A stretch of 36,161 bases of DNA from Flavobacteriia bacterium (lineage in GTDB: Bacteria; Bacteroidota; Bacteroidia; Flavobacteriales_D; Crocinitomicaceae). The translations under genes and the position numbers were made by a program. Below are positions 18,302 to 27,411 of the stretch, piece by piece. Positions within the stretch are counted from its first letter, which is position 1, and each line of letters begins with the position of its first letter. Under the pieces are notes generated by a model that saw only the letters and a list, made by a program, of their open reading frames with translations, was not told where the DNA came from and made no database searches. The stretch spans positions 1 to 36,161 of the forward strand of contig CANHQP010000038.1 in assembly GCA_947462925.1 (NCBI GenBank), given 5' to 3'.

Positions 18302-18350
18302 AATAATCATTAATGATAATAATCAACTGCTTTTTCGACTTATTATTTTG
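18302..18350 (+). promoter_or_regulatory. Operator-promoter of the response regulator-kinase operon (regulon site 1)
   Basis: AATAATCATTAATGATAATA at 18302-18321 matches the palindrome of the 21608 site at 16 of 20 positions, with the core TCATTAATGA intact. The -7 box TTATTTTG (5 of 6 consensus positions) starts 22 bases after the last operator base (18343-18350), the same distance as at the two other sites. The -33 TTG is missing, which fits activator dependence. Confidence 0.65.
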
Positions 18351-18397
18351 TACTTGAATTAAAAGATTAAATTTGTTAGAAATCTAAAAAACACCCA

Positions 18398-19036
18398 TTG
18401 AATTTAACAAAAAAAATACTCATTTGTGATGATCATATTTTGTTTAGCAATGGAATATCGGAGATAATTGAAAAATCTGGAATTACAGCTAAAATTACAG
18501 TCGTCAACACAAGTTCTAGGTGCATTGAAATGATCAAAGCAGAACCAATCGACGTGTTTATTTGCGATTTAAATATTGATGAAACAGATGGATTCTCGTT
18601 AGTTGAATCCTTAAAAAACTACCTTATAGGAGTCAAAATCATTATTTTAACAGCTTACTATGAAGATTTTTTAATTCAAAAAGCAAAAAAATCTGGAGTA
18701 CATGCTTTTTTAAAAAAAGAAAGTACGCCTGAAGAATTATTGTGGGTAATTGAAAACAATGATTTGAGCGAATTTTACTTTCAAAAACCAAAATCAAATA
18801 AATCGATTTTCAATCAGATTGATGAGAGTTTCACCAACCAATTTAAACTTTCAAAACAGGAAAAAGAAATTATCAAACTAATTGTTCGAGGAAAATCAAG
18901 CATTGAAATAAGTGAATTATTATTTATCAGTAAAACTACAGTTTCAACTCATCGAAGAAACATCAATAGAAAACTTGAAATAACCAACGTTGGATCTCTT
19001 ATCAAACTTGTACATGAAAATAATATTTTACTTTAG
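18398..19036 (+). CDS. NarL/LuxR-type response regulator
   Basis: 212 aa. Receiver domain about 5-120: acidic D11/D12, phosphoacceptor D57 in FICDLNIDETDG, T85 in ILTAYYE, K106 in AFLKK. LuxR-type HTH about 150-210 (LSKQEKEIIKLIVRGKSSIE, LFISKTTVSTHRRNINRKL). The start is a TTG: the only start codon after an in-frame TAG 19 bases upstream; the next ATG would remove the phosphoacceptor half. It overlaps the kinase gene by 23 bases, so they form one operon. An operator-like palindrome lies upstream. All receiver residues are present, so phosphorylation by the neighbouring kinase is expected. Confidence 0.93.
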   Translation: MNLTKKILICDDHILFSNGISEIIEKSGITAKITVVNTSSRCIEMIKAEPIDVFICDLNIDETDGFSLVESLKNYLIGVKIIILTAYYEDFLIQKAKKSGVHAFLKKESTPEELLWVIENNDLSEFYFQKPKSNKSIFNQIDESFTNQFKLSKQEKEIIKLIVRGKSSIEISELLFISKTTVSTHRRNINRKLEITNVGSLIKLVHENNILL

Positions 19037-20783
19037 TTTAGTACTTCTATTTTCATCTTTTCAATCATTCGCTGGTGAAAGTATTAAAACAAAGTACAGC
19101 TATATTATTGATAAAGAATCTGTTCTTGATATTTCTACAGTTAAAAACAAGGTGTTTCAAAAAATCAAATGGGAAGAAGATATCAATGTTGGATACAACG
19201 AAAATGATGCTGTTTGGTGTAAAGTTGAACTACAAAATATCGGCAAAAACAAAAGCATATATCTCGACTTCGCAAACATACAACTTGATAGTATCCAGCT
19301 TTTTGATTTAAACAAAATAACAACACAAGGAGATAGAACAACGATAAGTAGTCCATTTTTCCAATCTCATACTTTCAAGATTTCACTAAAGGCAAACCAA
19401 ACGAAAGTGCTCTATTTTAGAGTAAAAAAAACCATTTCTTTTTTCAACTTTTCAATGAGAATTAGAAATTTGAATGACTTAAAATCGGAAACTTTTACCT
19501 CAATGTTTTCAATTGCTATCTTATTGGGAATTGGCTTTATTTTATTTATATTCAATTTATTGATTTTCAGATTTACAAAAAGTAAGATCAATTTATACTA
19601 TCTTTTTTACTCCGTCACATCGATTGCTTATGTTTTAATTACAACTGGATTTCTTAAACATTTCTTCTTCCCAAATTTCTTATACATCAGTGAATTAAGG
19701 ATCTACTCAGGAAGTTTGTGGTTTCTTTTTTTGAGTTTGTTTATTTCGGAACTTCTAAATTTGAGAAATCAACAAAATAAATTCTTCAAGAATATAAGAA
19801 TGCTAGGTTTGATTAATTTAACACTGATGCTTTTGAGCTTTTCATTGCTGGTTTCAGGTCTTGAGTCTTATTTAAGGTATTTTATGTCTGTTGCCTATCT
19901 AAATTTTGCAGCAACCTTAATTGTACTTGTTTATGTCACCTTGAAAAATTACAAGCTTCAAAAAAGCAAAGTAAACTACATTTTATTCGCCTTTTTGCCC
20001 AATTTTATTTGGATTATTATTCTGATTTTAAAGGCGTTTAAATTGACTCCCAAGGAAGCAAACCTTGAATGGCTCATTTATCTTAACATATATGAAATCA
20101 GCCTATTTGGATATGTATTGATCAAAAATTACCTACAAACATTTCAAATAAACAATGATTTAAAACTAGAAATTTTATCTGAAAAGAAAAAAACAAATGA
20201 CTACATCACCCATGCTCAGATTAGGGAAAGAAAGCAAATTTCTAGCATTATTCACGATAAATTTGGAAGCAGATTGGCACATATTTCAAATCTTATCTCT
20301 TTAAAAAATGAACCTTTGGTTTTAAGAAATATTCAAGAATTGGCATCAGAACTGAGACTTGTTTCACATAATATCATGCCTAAATCTCTCGAAAGTGGCG
20401 CTCTTTTATCAAGTTTAAAAACACATGTTGAAAATTTAAATGCTGGTAGAGATGATTTAAAAATTCATATCGATACATACGATTTTCCAGAATTGATTTT
20501 TGAAAAATGGACATTTGATTTATTTTTAATTTCCAATGAAATTATACATAATTCACTCAAGCACGGCCATTCAACTGAAATTTTAATTGAATTATTTGGT
20601 TACGAAAATGACTATGTTTTTCAGTTCACGGACAATGGCCGAGGTTTTGAAGTATCAACATTTATCAAAGGGTTTGGTCTCAGTAATATTGAAAATAGAA
20701 TTAGTTCTTACGGAGGAACTTTCGAAATAAATAGTAAACCAAGCGAGGGCACTGTAGTGCAGATTGAGCTCAAGAGACATTAA
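19014..20783 (+). CDS. Sensor histidine kinase with 7TM-DISM sensor region
   Basis: 589 aa from ATG 19014, which follows the signal-like start MKIIFYFSLVLLFSSFQSFA; the frame could start earlier at 18990 but then the signal would be buried. Extracytoplasmic DISMED2-type beta domain about 25-155 (NENDAVWCKVELQN, LDFANIQLDSIQLFDL), seven hydrophobic helices about 163-375 (7TMR-DISM), then a kinase core of the NarX/DesK type: ERKQISSIIHDKFGSRL with H414, N-box NEIIHNSLKHG, G1 DNGRG (540-544), G2 GFGLSNI. The ligand is unknown; DISMED2 resembles carbohydrate-binding folds. It is the partner of the overlapping response regulator. Confidence 0.92.
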   Translation: MKIIFYFSLVLLFSSFQSFAGESIKTKYSYIIDKESVLDISTVKNKVFQKIKWEEDINVGYNENDAVWCKVELQNIGKNKSIYLDFANIQLDSIQLFDLNKITTQGDRTTISSPFFQSHTFKISLKANQTKVLYFRVKKTISFFNFSMRIRNLNDLKSETFTSMFSIAILLGIGFILFIFNLLIFRFTKSKINLYYLFYSVTSIAYVLITTGFLKHFFFPNFLYISELRIYSGSLWFLFLSLFISELLNLRNQQNKFFKNIRMLGLINLTLMLLSFSLLVSGLESYLRYFMSVAYLNFAATLIVLVYVTLKNYKLQKSKVNYILFAFLPNFIWIIILILKAFKLTPKEANLEWLIYLNIYEISLFGYVLIKNYLQTFQINNDLKLEILSEKKKTNDYITHAQIRERKQISSIIHDKFGSRLAHISNLISLKNEPLVLRNIQELASELRLVSHNIMPKSLESGALLSSLKTHVENLNAGRDDLKIHIDTYDFPELIFEKWTFDLFLISNEIIHNSLKHGHSTEILIELFGYENDYVFQFTDNGRGFEVSTFIKGFGLSNIENRISSYGGTFEINSKPSEGTVVQIELKRH

Positions 20784-20784
20784 A

Positions 20785-20833
20785 AATACCCATTTTTGAG
20801 TATTTTTTTTGGCTGATATTTAAAAGATATTTG
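20785..20833 (+). promoter_or_regulatory. Operator-promoter of the PAS/LuxR regulator gene (regulon site 2)
   Basis: AATACCCATTTTTGAGTATT at 20785-20804 differs from the palindrome at 21608-21627 in three of 20 bases. It starts 2 bases after the kinase stop codon. The -7 box GATATTTG (5 of 6 consensus positions) begins 22 bases after the operator end (20826-20833). A long T-run follows the operator, so weak termination of the upstream operon here is also possible. Confidence 0.75.
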
Positions 20834-20846
20834 CCTCAAAAATCGC

Positions 20847-21605
20847 ATGTTGGAAGAAATTCAGATTACTAAAATGCAAAAACAAACCGACAATTTAATT
20901 GATCACCAGAAACCTTACACTCCATTTGCTTTAAATCAATTGGAGGAAAAAATATTACTTAAATCATCAAGCTATTTTTTCATTTTTGAACATCTAACAA
21001 ATAAGATATCAAACATCAGTGCCTCAATCAAAGAAATTCATGGGCTAGATCCAAAGAATTGCGACTATAAAGATATTGTCAATCGCATCCACTCAGATGA
21101 TTTGGCACAGTATATAATGAGTATACAAGTTCGAACAGCTTTTTTTTCAAATGAAATAAACACTGAAAAAATCAATCAATACAATCAAAGTATTTTTTTC
21201 AGGATTAGGATTAAATCAGGTGAATTTAAAATTATCAATCAGCAATCCTTGATTATCGAGATGCAAGATACTGGACAAGTTTTAAAATCATTAATTGTAC
21301 ACACGCTTTTAGATAATATTTATCCGTCAAAAAAGAACATACAAAAACTGGTTTTCCAGCAAGAAAAGCCCAAATTGATTCCTTTGATTTTAGTTAAAAC
21401 ACAAGCAAATACTTTTAACGTTTCAAAAAGAGAGTTAGAAATTATTCAATTAATCTATGCTGGATTTGAGAATTTAGAAATTTCAAAAAAATTATTCATT
21501 AGCTTAAATACCGTAAAAAAGCACCGCAGTAATATCCTAAAAAAGTCTTCATGCAACAATACTGCACAACTTCTAAACAAATGTATTTCAGAGGGAATAA
21601 TCTAA
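20847..21605 (+). CDS. PAS-like / LuxR-type transcriptional regulator
   Basis: 252 aa. An N-terminal PAS_3-like region about 35-150 (SSYFFIFEHLTNKISNISASIKEIHG, DIVNRIHSDDLAQ, FFRIRIKSGEFKIINQQ) has the F/Y-x-x-x-x-H-S/P-D-D mark of such folds. A C-terminal LuxR HTH about 188-248 reads VSKRELEIIQLIYAGFENLE then LFISLNTVKKHRSNILKKS. No receiver domain, so it is not phosphorylated like its neighbour and probably reads a small molecule or protein signal in the cytoplasm. Its promoter carries the same palindrome as its target operon, so auto-regulation is likely (inference). ATG at 20847 gives a ~10-base leader; ATG 20874 is an alternative. Confidence 0.88.
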   Translation: MLEEIQITKMQKQTDNLIDHQKPYTPFALNQLEEKILLKSSSYFFIFEHLTNKISNISASIKEIHGLDPKNCDYKDIVNRIHSDDLAQYIMSIQVRTAFFSNEINTEKINQYNQSIFFRIRIKSGEFKIINQQSLIIEMQDTGQVLKSLIVHTLLDNIYPSKKNIQKLVFQQEKPKLIPLILVKTQANTFNVSKRELEIIQLIYAGFENLEISKKLFISLNTVKKHRSNILKKSSCNNTAQLLNKCISEGII

Positions 21606-21607
21606 AA

Positions 21608-21656
21608 AATACTCATTAATGAGTATTGACTACAGTTTTTACTAAAGGTAGATTTG
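21608..21656 (+). promoter_or_regulatory. Perfect 20-bp palindromic operator plus promoter of the propeller-barrel operon (regulon site 3)
   Basis: AATACTCATTAATGAGTATT at 21608-21627 is a perfect palindrome 3 bases after the regulator stop codon. The promoter is complete: TTG at 21626-21628 as -33 element, 20 bases, then TAGATTTG (full match to TAnnTTTG) at 21649-21656, 20 bases before the ATG at 21677. The operator overlaps the -33 element and is centred about 42 bases upstream of the expected transcription start, a class II activator position. Confidence 0.85.
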
Positions 21657-21676: not shown

Positions 21677-22720
21677 ATGAAAATAATACAAATAACAGTA
21701 CTCACTGCAATAGTCAGCAGTTGTGCAGTTAGAGAAAATCTTTATGAAGTTGAGCGAAAAGTTCAATACGTAAAAAAAGAACGTGTAATCGACTATCGTG
21801 ACCTGACTGTTCCTGAAGAAAGTGGAACTCAATTCATTCAATTTTCAACAGAAAGAGATTTTATAAATAATCCTTATGTAGAAAATAAAAAAGGGATTAT
21901 TTATTGGGAAGCCGATTCAAAAATCGATATTAGTCCTGATGGTAATAATGTTGCTTATGTTGGTTTTTCAAATGGAAAGAGCAACATTTACATCAAGTCA
22001 ACAAAAGGCGGTAAAGCAACCATTCAGCGAACCTTTAAGGAGCGTATCAACAATGTTTCCTATTCTATCGACGGAAAATATTTAGCTTATGCTGAAAAAC
22101 TAGACAATGATATGAATGTCAATCAAATTGATGCAAATCAAGGGGCTGCGGTTCAACAAATCACCAATACGACTCAAATCGAAACTTCTCCAATTTATTC
22201 GCCAGATAATAAAAATATCTACTATACAAAAGGAGAATATTCAACTGCCACAGATTCGTATAGATACTACATCTGGAGTTTCGAGCGAGGAACATCGATT
22301 CTTTCACAATTCTGTGAAGGTTTTTCTCCAACGATTAGTTCTGATAGCAAAACCCTCTATTTCGGTAGAAATAATAAGCAAACAGGTTTAGGCGAAATTT
22401 GGTCCGTCAACTTATTATCGGGACAAGAAACGCAGATTTTAGCAGATATTGAGAAGGGCTTCTCAACACCAAAAATTTCTCCTGATGGCAAAACATTGTT
22501 AATCACAGGATCAACTTTGGCAACATCTAAAAGAGTTGAAAATTTGGATGTTTATACTATTAAAACCGATGGCACTAAATTGACTCAACTTACATTTCAC
22601 CCTGGACACGATTTATCACCAGTTTGGAGTCCTGATGGAAATCAAATTTTCTTTATTTCTCAAAGAGGAAATGAAAAAGGAAATTATGGCATTTGGTCTA
22701 TCAACTATAACAAGCAATAA
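21677..22720 (+). CDS. TolB/PD40-type beta-propeller lipoprotein
   Basis: 347 aa. Lipoprotein signal MKIIQITVLTAIVSSC (C16). From about residue 75 PD40 beta-propeller repeats follow: KIDISPDGNNVAYVGF, VSYSIDGKYLAYAEK, PIYSPDNKNIYYTKG, TISSDSKTLYFGRN, PKISPDGKTLLITG and PVWSPDGNQIFFISQRG, about six blades. Such propellers in Bacteroidota are lipid-anchored envelope proteins that often bind other envelope proteins or glycans. It is followed after 2 bases by an outer-membrane barrel gene, so it is one operon; the pair is preceded by the perfect palindrome. Function beyond a scaffold or binding role is not visible. Confidence 0.88.
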   Translation: MKIIQITVLTAIVSSCAVRENLYEVERKVQYVKKERVIDYRDLTVPEESGTQFIQFSTERDFINNPYVENKKGIIYWEADSKIDISPDGNNVAYVGFSNGKSNIYIKSTKGGKATIQRTFKERINNVSYSIDGKYLAYAEKLDNDMNVNQIDANQGAAVQQITNTTQIETSPIYSPDNKNIYYTKGEYSTATDSYRYYIWSFERGTSILSQFCEGFSPTISSDSKTLYFGRNNKQTGLGEIWSVNLLSGQETQILADIEKGFSTPKISPDGKTLLITGSTLATSKRVENLDVYTIKTDGTKLTQLTFHPGHDLSPVWSPDGNQIFFISQRGNEKGNYGIWSINYNKQ

Positions 22721-22722
22721 TC

Positions 22723-23628
22723 ATGAAATATACACACATTATAACAGGGGTAATTTTGACCCAATTTTTTGCATTCAACCACGCAGTTGGGCAATATACC
22801 AAAGGTGGTTCAGAAAAAAACTATGATCGTTTCAATGTTTCTTATGATTCCATCGTCACAGAGAAAAAAATTCCAATTGAAGGAGTTAGTTCTGGTTATG
22901 TTGGTTTTACATTTAGCTTTTTGAAAACTTCAGATGCTTTATCTAGATCACAAATGACTCAGGCTGAATATGCGTCTTCACCCAATTTTGCGGCTCCAAT
23001 TTCAACTGGAAAGATGGGGTTAAAAAATGGTTTTAATTTGGGTTTAAACTTTCAAAGTCCATTGAAAGGAATTAATAAAAATTTAATTCCACAGATTGAC
23101 CTTGGTTTTAACACAAAGTTTAGCGGCTCTTTAATTAAATATGACTGGAAACAAATTTATACTGACCAATCAACCGTTTTTTACGAACTTTTTCAAGGTG
23201 CAACTTATTCTCCAATTGCCATTGTTTCGGCCGGAACAGGACCTTCTATCACTTTCATTCACAATCCTAAAAAACCGATATTCTTTATTGATGGATACTT
23301 AAGATTCAATGTACATGGTGTTTTTGGAGGAAACATGGAGTCTGAATTTACGGATGCTGTAAATACTTATGATCTTTCTATTTACAGAGATCAACCAACC
23401 ATTAGTTTTTCACCAAGTATTGGTTTGAATTTCAGGATTGGACCGTTGATGCTTTTTGTGGAGAAAAATTTTGGCATCAAAGATCAGTCTGCCAATACTT
23501 CCAAATCATTTAGTGAAAGTTACACAGTAGATACAGATTTTGATTATAGCTATTACAGCGGAACCGTTTTTAACTCAAATCTACTAAAATATAGTAATGT
23601 ACAATTCGGCTTTGGTTTGGTGTTTTAA
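22723..23628 (+). CDS. Outer-membrane beta-barrel protein of unknown function
   Basis: 301 aa. Signal peptide about 1-23 (cleavage near HAVGQYT). The rest is amphipathic beta-strands with aromatic ends (SGYVGFTFSFLKTSDA, GFNLGLNFQSPL, QIDLGFNTKFSG, FFIDGYLRFNVHG, ISFSPSIGLNFRIGPLMLFVEKNFG) and ends in ...VQFGFGLVF, a terminal-phenylalanine barrel signal. It starts 2 bases after the propeller stop, so a two-protein envelope complex is likely. No family recognised. A strong terminator follows. Confidence 0.82.
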   Translation: MKYTHIITGVILTQFFAFNHAVGQYTKGGSEKNYDRFNVSYDSIVTEKKIPIEGVSSGYVGFTFSFLKTSDALSRSQMTQAEYASSPNFAAPISTGKMGLKNGFNLGLNFQSPLKGINKNLIPQIDLGFNTKFSGSLIKYDWKQIYTDQSTVFYELFQGATYSPIAIVSAGTGPSITFIHNPKKPIFFIDGYLRFNVHGVFGGNMESEFTDAVNTYDLSIYRDQPTISFSPSIGLNFRIGPLMLFVEKNFGIKDQSANTSKSFSESYTVDTDFDYSYYSGTVFNSNLLKYSNVQFGFGLVF

Positions 23629-23676
23629 AATTTATTGAGGGAATAAACCTTTAAAATTTTAGTTATCAATAAATAG

Positions 23677-23709
23677 ATCCTGATTACGGTAAGGTAATCA
23701 GGATTTTTG
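23677..23709. terminator. Terminator between the barrel gene and the convergent DUF1573 gene
   Basis: An 11-bp perfect stem ATCCTGATTAC (23677-23687) with GTAATCAGGAT (23694-23704), loop GGTAAG, then five T. It closes the regulated operon. Confidence 0.88.
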
Positions 23710-24780: not shown

Positions 24781-27411
24781 CTACTTTACAATCGAAATTC
24801 TTACTGTTTTGGTTTCAAATCCAGAAGAAATTTGTAATAAATAAATTCCTTCACTGAAAATTGAATAGTCCAACTCGAACTTTGATCCATCTAATTTTTG
24901 ATCGGTCAAAGTTTTACCACTCAAATCTAAAAGCTTTAGATTCATCTGTTTCACATCCATTGGAAAAACAAGTTTAAATATTCCATTTGATGGATTTGGA
25001 ACTACATTGAAATTTGCCATTTCCGAATCACTTACCGACATATAATTATCCGTGTTGTCACAATTTTCATCAATTCCGTTGTTCAAAATTTCAGGTGAAC
25101 CAGGATAAGCCCCAGCATTGTCATCATCACAATCATTGTTGTTCAAAGAGTAACCAATTCCCGGATCTGAACAGAAATCTCCCGCACTTCCTTGTCCGTA
25201 AGTATCTCCATCATTATCTATATAATAAACAGTAGTTTGCAATCCTTCATTGGTTTGACCATTGCAATTATTGTCGAAATCATCACAAATTTCTGGCGCA
25301 CCAGGATAAACAGAGTTTTGACTATCATCACAATCGGTATTATTCAAGACATACCCAAATCCTGGATCTTGGCAAAATTCAGCTCCACTGGCAACACCAA
25401 AACCATCAGAATCGTTGTCTTCATAATACATAACAGGAAAAATCGAAGAAGGATCTGAATCATCACAATCTCCAGTAATCAACGCGAAGCCAGAAGGAGG
25501 CTCACAACCTTCAAAAGTTGTACTTTCTACACCAACATTATCACCATCTAAATCTTCGTACCAAACAGTTGTAGGATTAATCGCTGCGTTGTTATCGTCG
25601 CAATCTGTATTGTCAGCAACATATCCAACCGGTGCGCTACATGCAGAAATGGTAACAGCAGCATTTCCATAGGTATCGCCATCTGCATCAGCATAAAATG
25701 TAGATGGTTGAATTGAATTGATGTTTCCTACTATCGTAATGTTGTCATTTCTCCAAGTTGCTTGAATAGAACCCATATTAATGATATAAAACCTAAAAGT
25801 AACTTGTGAAATTGCATCAAAAGAGGCAGGCAAAACAATGGTATCCGTTTTATCTGTTATAATTGAAGTTCCTGTAGCCAAATCACTGGCAAAGTTGTCT
25901 AAACTAGATCGCACGATATAAGTTGGCGCTCCACCTGATGCACTAATTTGGTGCGTAAAAATTAATTTATTTAAATCCAAAGAAAAGCAATCACTGCTTG
26001 AAACTGCAAATTGATTGTATTCATCTAAATCTAAAGTCGTTCCAAGGTTCCATCCGCTTGTACTAAAAACATTAGCAGAACCACTACAATTCGTTCCCAA
26101 GGTAGAAAAATCTCCAAAAACAGCATTTGAAGGTTGCGTAGTAACAGAAACAGCTGTGACTGGACAAGCAGCTGCTTGCGTAAATTCATACAAACCTAAA
26201 TTGGAACCTAGAGCAGAAGCATCAGTACCTGAGCAATCTTCATCTATCCCGTTGTCTGGAATATCCGTAGCATTAGAATTAATATTGAAATCATTGTCAT
26301 TACAATCCAACGAATTCTCAGCGTATCCGTTTGGCACAACGCATCCTAAAGTTGTATTATTTAAATCTCCAAAACCATCTAAATCAGCATCTAAATAATA
26401 AGTTGTATTTCCAATTCCAATGGCAGGACTTTGATCATCGCAATCATTGCTATTCAAAACATATCCTGAAATTGGTGGAACACAAGTATTGATGCTGTTA
26501 TTGATATCTCCAAAACCATCAGCGTCGTTGTCTGCATAATAAACAACGCCTGTTTCAATCGTTAAATTGATTGTTAAAATACTATCGCATAAAGTATAAT
26601 TCGGAATGGTATCATAATAAACACCCGAAGCAGTATAAGTTTCATCGCCACTAGGCACAGTGTATGAATTGCAAGCAGTTTCATTTACTATGCTCGAAGT
26701 ATTGCAACCAATTGTCCAAGCCAATGTAACATCATCAATTCCCAAACCGTCATCATTTCCAGCGTGATTAATATCTTCCCACTTAATCATCATGTAATGT
26801 CCATTTGGAATAGAAAGATTAGGAATTGAAATATTTGAAAGTGAGACTTGATTGACTGCTGAATTTCCGTCTAATGCTCCAGTAGTTGCAGTATTAATTG
26901 GACTTTCAGAAGTCAAAACTGTGACTGGTATCCAACCTGTATTGTCTCCAGGTGTCAAATCAGAAATGGTAGCGGAGCTGATTTTATACCAAACTGTAAT
27001 TTGATCTGGTGTTGTATTTCCTCCATTTCTCCATTGCTCAAGTGTATAACTTACCGATAGTTGATCTAATACAAAACCAGAATTATTCTGTAGCAAAACG
27101 CCATAAGCAAAATTCAATGCAGATGAATTATCCGAACCAACACTTCCAAGTGCGCGTTCATTGCTTCCACTAGAACCAAAACTGTATAAATTTCCGACCG
27201 TTGAAGATCCTGTTCCAGCTTGATAGGTTGCGCCAAACCCAGATCTTTGCGCAAAATAATTTGGAATTGTATTATTGTCATTCCAAGTATTTACCGAGCC
27301 CGTATTTAACAAAGCATCAAAGTTTTGGCTTGAATTTCCTGACGTAGTAATATTAATCTGTGCAGATAATGCCATCGGAAGCAAGCACAGCGCAATTAGT
27401 TTTATTTTCAT
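24781..27411 (-). CDS. Large T9SS substrate with DxDxDG/MopE-type repeats
   Basis: 876 aa. Signal peptide about 1-17 (LLPMALSAQINIT). Two lectin-like beta regions (about 20-235 and 405-570) flank and precede at least six repeats of the type YYxDxDxDGFGD ... DCDDxxxxINPG (e.g. YYADNDADGFGD, YYLDADLDGFGD, YYADADGDTYGN, YYEDNDSDGFG, YYIDNDGDTYGQ), with the full MopE form APEICDDFDNNCNGQTNEG once. These acidic loops probably bind calcium. The last ~75 residues are a T9SS type A sorting domain (FNVVPNPSNGIFKLVFP, YSIFSEGIYLLQIS, KTVRISIVK). A surface or secreted protein; adhesion is a guess. Confidence 0.9.
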   Translation of the reverse strand: MKIKLIALCLLPMALSAQINITTSGNSSQNFDALLNTGSVNTWNDNNTIPNYFAQRSGFGATYQAGTGSSTVGNLYSFGSSGSNERALGSVGSDNSSALNFAYGVLLQNNSGFVLDQLSVSYTLEQWRNGGNTTPDQITVWYKISSATISDLTPGDNTGWIPVTVLTSESPINTATTGALDGNSAVNQVSLSNISIPNLSIPNGHYMMIKWEDINHAGNDDGLGIDDVTLAWTIGCNTSSIVNETACNSYTVPSGDETYTASGVYYDTIPNYTLCDSILTINLTIETGVVYYADNDADGFGDINNSINTCVPPISGYVLNSNDCDDQSPAIGIGNTTYYLDADLDGFGDLNNTTLGCVVPNGYAENSLDCNDNDFNINSNATDIPDNGIDEDCSGTDASALGSNLGLYEFTQAAACPVTAVSVTTQPSNAVFGDFSTLGTNCSGSANVFSTSGWNLGTTLDLDEYNQFAVSSSDCFSLDLNKLIFTHQISASGGAPTYIVRSSLDNFASDLATGTSIITDKTDTIVLPASFDAISQVTFRFYIINMGSIQATWRNDNITIVGNINSIQPSTFYADADGDTYGNAAVTISACSAPVGYVADNTDCDDNNAAINPTTVWYEDLDGDNVGVESTTFEGCEPPSGFALITGDCDDSDPSSIFPVMYYEDNDSDGFGVASGAEFCQDPGFGYVLNNTDCDDSQNSVYPGAPEICDDFDNNCNGQTNEGLQTTVYYIDNDGDTYGQGSAGDFCSDPGIGYSLNNNDCDDDNAGAYPGSPEILNNGIDENCDNTDNYMSVSDSEMANFNVVPNPSNGIFKLVFPMDVKQMNLKLLDLSGKTLTDQKLDGSKFELDYSIFSEGIYLLQISSGFETKTVRISIVK

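What the first reader, a model, noticed from the sequence alone, without database searches (positions are those of the whole stretch)
18302..21656. Three copies of one palindrome at identical distance from three promoters: a compact, undescribed-looking regulon
Seen: AATACTCATTAATGAGTATT (21608-21627, perfect palindrome), AATACCCATTTTTGAGTATT (20785-20804, 17/20) and AATAATCATTAATGATAATA (18302-18321, 16/20). In each case the -7 box TAnnTTTG (or a 5-of-6 match) starts exactly 22 bases after the last operator base: 21649, 20826 and 18343. The three sites lie before the response regulator-kinase operon, the PAS/LuxR regulator gene and the propeller-barrel operon, and nowhere else in the window with that spacing. 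Inference: one LuxR-type regulator encoded here binds all three, which gives auto-regulation plus control of the envelope pair.
Basis: partly seen in the sequence, partly recalled or inferred. Interest (0 to 1): 0.85.

Follow-up and report, generated by a model that had tools for sequence, protein, structure and literature searches.

The report
Fixed-distance LuxR switch before envelope genes
Two of the three reported palindromes are copies of one DNA site lying exactly 21 bases before a promoter-type box, an arrangement that recurs beside LuxR-type regulator genes in about two dozen related genomes, so the regulator encoded next door likely binds both copies and would switch on itself and a pair of predicted cell-envelope genes; the third palindrome does not match the set.

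Summary
A (21608) and B (20785) fit the NarL-type "7-2-7" operator (TACYYMT-N2-AKRRGTA), 21 bases before a -7 box. Sites and spacings are kept in the syntenic locus of a second species (A 20/20, B 19/20). C (18302) scores at background against a matrix from 22 sites in other genomes, and its box is lost in the second species.

The spacing is a real rule. Beside 53 PAS-LuxR genes chosen by protein homology alone (window excluded), 17 sites lie in narrow flanks (1.35 expected), 10 with the box exactly 21 bases away; other distances have 0-2. 20 control LuxR genes have no site; nor do 37 of the 53. The architecture gave 59 matches in 399 order genomes and 56 in 296 class genomes (reversed controls 8 and 6), about a third of those examined next to LuxR-type genes with PAS, receiver or TPR-SpoIIE domains. 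The predicted centre, -43.5, is close to a known NarL activating position.

Best reading: the PAS-LuxR protein binds A and B and activates itself and the propeller-barrel operon. Binding and activation are inferred. New variant of a known kind.

The parts
21608..21627 (+). Site A: perfect palindrome AATACTCATTAATGAGTATT (TACTCAT-TA-ATGAGTA), proposed operator before the propeller-barrel operon
   Evidence: 20/20 in G001; matrix score 29.6 = maximum
21626..21628 (+). TTG at predicted -35 to -33, overlapping the last two operator bases
   Evidence: first spacer base is G in 27 of 43 matches of a pattern that did not specify it
21649..21656 (+). -7 box TAGATTTG; predicted start 21661
   Evidence: box position -12 to -5 from PMC9723704 (passages)
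20785..20804 (+). Site B: AATACCCATTTTTGAGTATT, proposed operator before the PAS-LuxR gene
   Evidence: AATACTCATTTTTGAGTATT in G001; matrix score 26.6
20826..20833 (+). -7-like box GATATTTG (5/6), identical in G001; predicted start 20838
20847..21605 (+). PAS-LuxR-type one-component regulator, 252 aa, GerE helix-turn-helix; proposed binder of A and B
   Evidence: Pfam GerE; relative of solved 3CLO; 53 relatives examined
21677..22720 (+). TolB-like beta-propeller protein with lipoprotein-like N-terminus, 347 aa; proposed target
   Evidence: 94.5% identical in G001
22723..23628 (+). 301-aa strand-rich (barrel-like) protein; second gene of the proposed target operon
   Evidence: no Pfam match; low-confidence model (mean pLDDT 58.8) with many long strands
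18302..18321 (+). Site C: AT-rich palindrome AATAATCATTAATGATAATA; does not match the A/B operator
   Evidence: matrix score 7.3, rank 10; 17/20 in G001
18343..18350 (+).
18368..18375 (+). TAAATTTG, perfect and conserved box, a likelier -7 box of the receiver-kinase operon
18398..19036 (+). NarL/LuxR-type response regulator (receiver + GerE), TTG start
19014..20783 (+). 7TMR-DISM sensor histidine kinase
23675..23706 (.). Terminator-like repeat (listed on both strands) after the barrel gene
   Evidence: conserved in G001

Best explanation
Sites A (21608-21627) and B (20785-20804) are two copies of one NarL-type 7-2-7 palindrome lying exactly 21 bases before a -7 box (6/6 at A, 5/6 at B), and the PAS-LuxR protein encoded between them (20847-21605) likely binds both as a dimer at a predicted -43.5 and would activate its own gene and the propeller-barrel operon. 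Shown: the sites, the exact spacing, conservation in a second species, recurrence of site + spacing beside LuxR-type genes across the class, and, at A and in most strong matches elsewhere, a TTG made with the operator's edge (absent in B). Inferred: that this protein is the binder, that it is a dimer, that it activates (a position-invariant site just upstream of the polymerase footprint fits contact-activation better than blocking), that the N-terminal domain senses a signal, and the transcription starts. Site C and the receiver-kinase operon lie outside this circuit, or under another regulator.
For: Both sites and boxes keep their spacing in G001 (A 20/20, box 7/8; B 19/20, box 8/8) while the surroundings of B change (112 of 187 aligned columns identical). 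53 PAS-LuxR genes chosen by protein alone: 17 sites vs 1.35 expected (maximum 6 in 300 Markov sets); 10 of 17 have the box at 21 (two of the ten are G001's), other gaps 0-2; 0 sites in the same flanks of 20 control LuxR genes. Symmetry alone (9 of 10 pairs) also peaks at gap 21: 6 of 53 genes, against 0-1 at every other gap from 10 to 35. Genome scans: 59 vs 8 reversed-control matches, 56 vs 6; a 26-base gap gives 15 rows (reversed control 6), 8 of them on palindromes already found at gap 21. 22 of 65 distinct matches in 59 loci adjoin a LuxR-type gene (four of the 22 are the window's and G001's), ten of those lie 0-15 nt after its stop. Unspecified first spacer base is G in 27 of 43. Half-site TACGCA goes with helix TVRKHVE/TIRKHIE in three genomes, TACTC mostly with HRR/YRR/HRS-type helices. 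NarL activates from a site centred -44.5, 32 bp from its -10 element (PMC9314961 passages); here it is 31.5 bases from centre to box.
Against: 37 of 53 PAS-LuxR relatives show no such site in the flanks scanned. No binding, expression or start-site data. B lacks the -33 TTG and has a 5/6 box; its predicted leader is only 9 nt. The receiver-GerE protein of the same locus could bind the same format. Pfam finds no PAS domain in this protein; the model behind the PAS match has mean pLDDT 60.9. Helix/half-site pairing has exceptions: G689 (TVRKHVA beside TACTCCT) and G126 (TVRTHWR beside TACTCAC). Direct locus conservation rests on one other species. Most pattern matches (43 of 65) have no LuxR-type gene in the flanks scanned.
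Confidence: 0.74

Rival explanations
1. The NarL-type response regulator (18398-19036), activated by the 7TMR-DISM kinase, binds A, B and perhaps C; the PAS-LuxR gene is only a target. The locus would be a two-component cascade.
For: It carries the same GerE domain, and receiver-GerE regulators elsewhere sit next to 7-2-7 sites at the same gap (G143, G644, G015, G159, receivers confirmed). C is a palindrome before its operon.
Against: A-type sites follow PAS-LuxR genes in loci where tblastn with this receiver and kinase hit nothing but the PAS-LuxR gene's own HTH (G052 L045, G069 L070; G135 L056, only 3 kb held). C scores at background.
Confidence: 0.15
2. A or B are repressor sites: the dimer overlaps the -33 element and blocks polymerase, giving negative autoregulation and repression of the envelope pair until a signal arrives.
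For: At A the operator overlaps the TTG at -35 to -33.
Against: A repressor would work at many positions, whereas the distance is nearly fixed to the base. The position is that of known NarL activation.
Confidence: 0.18
3. The palindromes are transcription terminators of the genes that end just before them, and the spacing is incidental.
For: A and B start 2 and 1 bases after stop codons; B is followed by a T run in the window.
Against: A has no T run and neither site is on the terminator list. B's T run is broken in G001 while the palindrome improves. Sites also occur upstream of divergent genes (G004, G143, G178, G644). A terminator does not predict a box at exactly 21.
Confidence: 0.04
4. 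All three sites, C included, form one regulon.
For: C is a palindrome with a 5/6 box at the same distance and is 17/20 conserved.
Against: C scores 7.3 vs 26.6 and 29.6, below other window positions (part of the matrix sites were found with a pattern built on A, which favours A-like sites); its box is lost in G001.
Confidence: 0.07

Closest known systems
E. coli NarL/NarP 7-2-7 sites (ogt1052, yeaR, napF)
   Same: Inverted heptamers of TACYYMT type (consensus recalled) two bases apart, read by GerE domains; an activating site centred -44.5, 32 bp upstream of the -10 element (ogt1052, PMC9314961, passages). The engineered site quoted in PMC4549865 (passages) has the same format.
   Different: The Bacteroidota-type promoter is TAnnTTTG with a -33 TTG, not -10/-35; many of the regulators beside the sites are one-component or large TPR/SpoIIE proteins; the spacing is nearly invariant and the operator edge supplies part of the -33 element; nothing links it to nitrate.
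3CLO, LuxR-type regulator of Bacteroides thetaiotaomicron (solved)
   Same: Best sequence match (residues 73-241, E 2.8e-11) and best fold match to the window's PAS-LuxR protein.
   Different: About 19% identity in the fold alignment; the listed titles give no operator or function.
VqmA, PAS-LuxR one-component receptor of Vibrio cholerae
   Same: PAS sensor plus LuxR-type domain (fold match).
   Different: Its ligand (DPO) and operator belong to another system (recalled); ligand genes were not sought here.
Bacteroidota sigma-A promoters (F. psychrophilum start-site map, PMC9723704)
   Same: TAnnTTTG at -12 to -5 (passages read).
   Different: The word LuxR does not occur in the main text held, so no such operator is described there.

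Membership tests
NarL-type 7-2-7 operator | Two inverted heptamers TACYYMT/AKRRGTA (consensus recalled) | tested here: met
   A 14/14, B 13/14; C 11/14
NarL-type 7-2-7 operator | Two-base spacer between heptamers | tested here: met
   Sequence of A and B
NarL-type 7-2-7 operator | Site at an activating distance from the promoter | tested here: met
   31.5 bases from centre to box; 32 bp for ogt1052; activation itself untested
NarL-type 7-2-7 operator | Bound by a GerE-domain dimer | not testable with these tools
   No binding assay; adjacency and half-site/helix pairing only
GerE/LuxR DNA-binding regulator | GerE helix-turn-helix | tested here: met
   Pfam PF00196, 4.2e-14
PAS-LuxR one-component regulator | PAS-fold sensor before GerE | tested here: inconclusive
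   No Pfam PAS hit, but relative L189 has PAS_3 at 3e-11 and PAS folds match a low-confidence model
Two-component response regulator (for 20847-21605) | Receiver domain | tested here: not met
   Only GerE found
Quorum-sensing LuxR | Autoinducer-binding domain | tested here: not met
   Not among Pfam matches
Intrinsic terminator | Hairpin followed by a conserved T run | tested here: not met
   A none; B's run broken in G001; neither listed
Regulon of three sites as proposed | All three sites match one matrix with conserved spacing | tested here: not met
   C at background, box lost

The most novel reading that the evidence does not exclude
Bacteroidota use a common promoter grammar for LuxR/GerE-type regulators: the regulator gene is followed, often within a few bases of its stop codon, by a 7-2-7 operator whose edge is fused to the -33 TTG and which lies exactly 21 bases before TAnnTTTG of the target, often an exported protein; the central heptamer bases change together with the recognition helix. 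This would let targets and operators of many orphan LuxR-type regulators (PAS, receiver, TPR-SpoIIE) be read straight from sequence.
Probability: 0.62. Interest if true: 0.8.

Novelty: new variant of a known kind. Interest (0 to 1): 0.68.

Why it matters
Bacteroidota carry many orphan LuxR-type regulators whose targets are unknown and whose promoters differ from those of E. coli. A base-exact operator-promoter format, found here from one locus and seen again across the class, gives a direct way to predict regulator, operator, start site and target together, and shows how a proteobacterial-style activator position may be fitted to the Bacteroidota sigma factor. The two-site circuit of this window (self plus one envelope operon) is a minimal test case.

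Tried and rejected
One regulon of three sites: rejected for C. Terminators: rejected. Mobile repeat: the 20 spacer positions after the first are unconserved among 43 matches (information 0.17 or less), so it is not a copied element. The third match (C40:29447) lies at the start of another open frame and has no box within the limits; set aside. The five g22-genus matches (TACTCCTGCAGAAGTA) are near-identical to each other and look like conserved coding sequence; I did not translate them. Exported-target enrichment is modest: 32 of 47 downstream ORFs pass a crude signal test, against 104 of 244 genes in 24 other loci (Fisher p 0.002) and 19 of 29 in the window itself. Structure models of the PAS-LuxR and barrel-like proteins were of low confidence. 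Literature: among the titles listed none is about LuxR-type operators at a fixed distance in Bacteroidota; lists were capped and the library lacks most subscription papers.
Full report
The observation. The three 20-mers and boxes are at the stated places. A and B are the only matches (up to 3 mismatches) to the perfect palindrome in the held genome, 3.36 Mb and 92% complete, and the only ones with the box at 21 bases. C is weaker: in a matrix built from 22 sites of other genomes A scores 29.6 (the maximum), B 26.6, the best other window position 9.5 and C 7.3. Part of those 22 sites was found with a pattern built on A, so the matrix favours A-like sites; it still says that C is not of A's kind. 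C fits the 7-2-7 consensus in 11 of 14 positions.

The second species. G001, which matches in contig length a MAG contig that names CANFUT010000011.1 (Flavobacteriia bacterium isolate Jr-16oct17-197), holds all 12 proteins tested from this neighbourhood in the same order (62-95% identical). A is 20/20 with TAGTTTTG at the same distance. B is 19/20, its one change making it more palindromic, with GATATTTG unchanged. Around B only 112 of 187 aligned columns are identical (126 of 161 around A, 166 of 231 around C). So A and B with their boxes are conserved units; C with its box is not.

What the site is. TACTCAT-TA-ATGAGTA is the NarL/NarP 7-2-7 format (heptamer consensus TACYYMT recalled; format and an engineered example in passages of PMC4549865). 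With the Bacteroidota box at -12 to -5 (PMC9723704 passages), the centre of A is at a predicted -43.5. E. coli NarL activates ogt1052 from -44.5, 32 bp from the -10 element (PMC9314961 passages); here it is 31.5 bases from centre to box.

Test by protein homology. I took 53 genes (52 full-length hits of that search plus G003; the window's own gene left out, G001 kept) and 20 LuxR-type genes that match only in the HTH as controls. In narrow flanks, 17 sites of at least 12/14 were found in 16 genes (G001 has two); 37 genes had none. Markov sequences gave 1.35 on average, at most 6 in 300 sets. Ten of the 17 have a box of at least 5/6 at exactly 21 (seven perfect); the next best gap, 18, has 2. 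Controls: no site in the same flanks of 20 genes; in wider flanks one control (G340) has a 12/14 match without such a box. With symmetry alone as criterion, 6 of 53 genes have a 9/10 palindrome with the box at 21, against 0-1 at every other gap from 10 to 35.

Test by pattern. Palindrome + 21 + box, up to 3 mismatches: 59 rows in 37 of 399 order genomes against 8 for the reversed pattern; 56 rows (two of them the window's) in 37 of 296 class genomes against 6. A 26-base gap in 240 family genomes gave 15 rows (reversed control 6), 8 of them on palindromes already found with gap 21; one search had 49 rows in that family from a somewhat different draw. Of 46 rows with at most 2 mismatches, I dropped three (an opposite-strand reading in G069 and the window's two repeats). 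In the remaining 43 (window A and B included; one G007 palindrome counts in both directions) the first spacer base, not specified in the pattern, is G in 27, T in 15 and A in 1; with G it makes a TTG at -35 to -33. The other 20 spacer positions carry almost no information.

Who binds. Of 65 distinct matches in the 59 loci held from these two scans (loci were given for 30 of the 59 rows and about half of the 56), 22 adjoin a LuxR-type HTH gene, four of them the window's and G001's own; ten lie 0-15 nt after its stop. 43 of 65 had no such gene in the flanks scanned. Counting and the variant scan, about two dozen genomes have a match beside a LuxR-type gene. The regulators differ in architecture: PAS-GerE, receiver-GerE, TPR-SpoIIE-GerE, and a 1280-aa SpoIIE-GerE protein. 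The variant half-site TACGCA (50 rows in 296 genomes, many of them shared or of other half-sites such as TACGTA) lies next to receiver-GerE proteins with helix TVRKHVE or TIRKHIE in three genomes (G143, G644, and G015, where one half is TACGAA), while TACTC sites mostly have TVDTHRR, TVDTYRR or TVKKHRS neighbours; G689 and G126 are exceptions. This pairing supports binding by the neighbour. In the window the neighbour of both sites is the PAS-LuxR gene; its best solved relative is 3CLO.

How it would work. Inferred: on a signal sensed by the N-terminal domain, a dimer fills A and B just upstream of, and touching, the -33 region and recruits polymerase. Product: more of itself and of a TolB-like propeller protein with a strand-rich partner. 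Repression is possible but does not explain the near base-exact spacing. In this genome the set is just two promoters; in G007 seven rows on six palindromes suggest a larger set.

Limits. 

Noticed in passing
G632 places (locus L229 held): Six matches of AATACGTATAAATACGTATT-like palindromes 21 bases before TAnnTTTG in one genome: a larger set of a related half-site.
   Followed up: no
L191:4653-6947, L185:1682-3964, L187:4082-6703, L174:4114-7956: Large regulators joining TPR repeats and/or a SpoIIE-like phosphatase domain to a GerE domain, with the same operator format beside them.
   Followed up: partly
L174:10114-10191 (G007:C133): One palindrome serves two divergent matches; that genome has seven rows on six palindromes and a 1280-aa SpoIIE-GerE gene.
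   Followed up: partly
L160, L217, L231: TACGCA-type half-sites beside receiver-GerE regulators with helix TVRKHVE/TIRKHIE: a possible operator-helix code.
   Followed up: partly
23675-23706: Terminator-like repeat on both strands between convergent genes, conserved in the second species.
   Followed up: no
18415-18434: A left half-site AATACTCATT lies inside the start of the response regulator gene, over a coding stretch (KKILICDDH); probably chance.
   Followed up: no
24781-27411: Large protein with MopE-type metal-binding motifs and a Por secretion tail.
   Followed up: no
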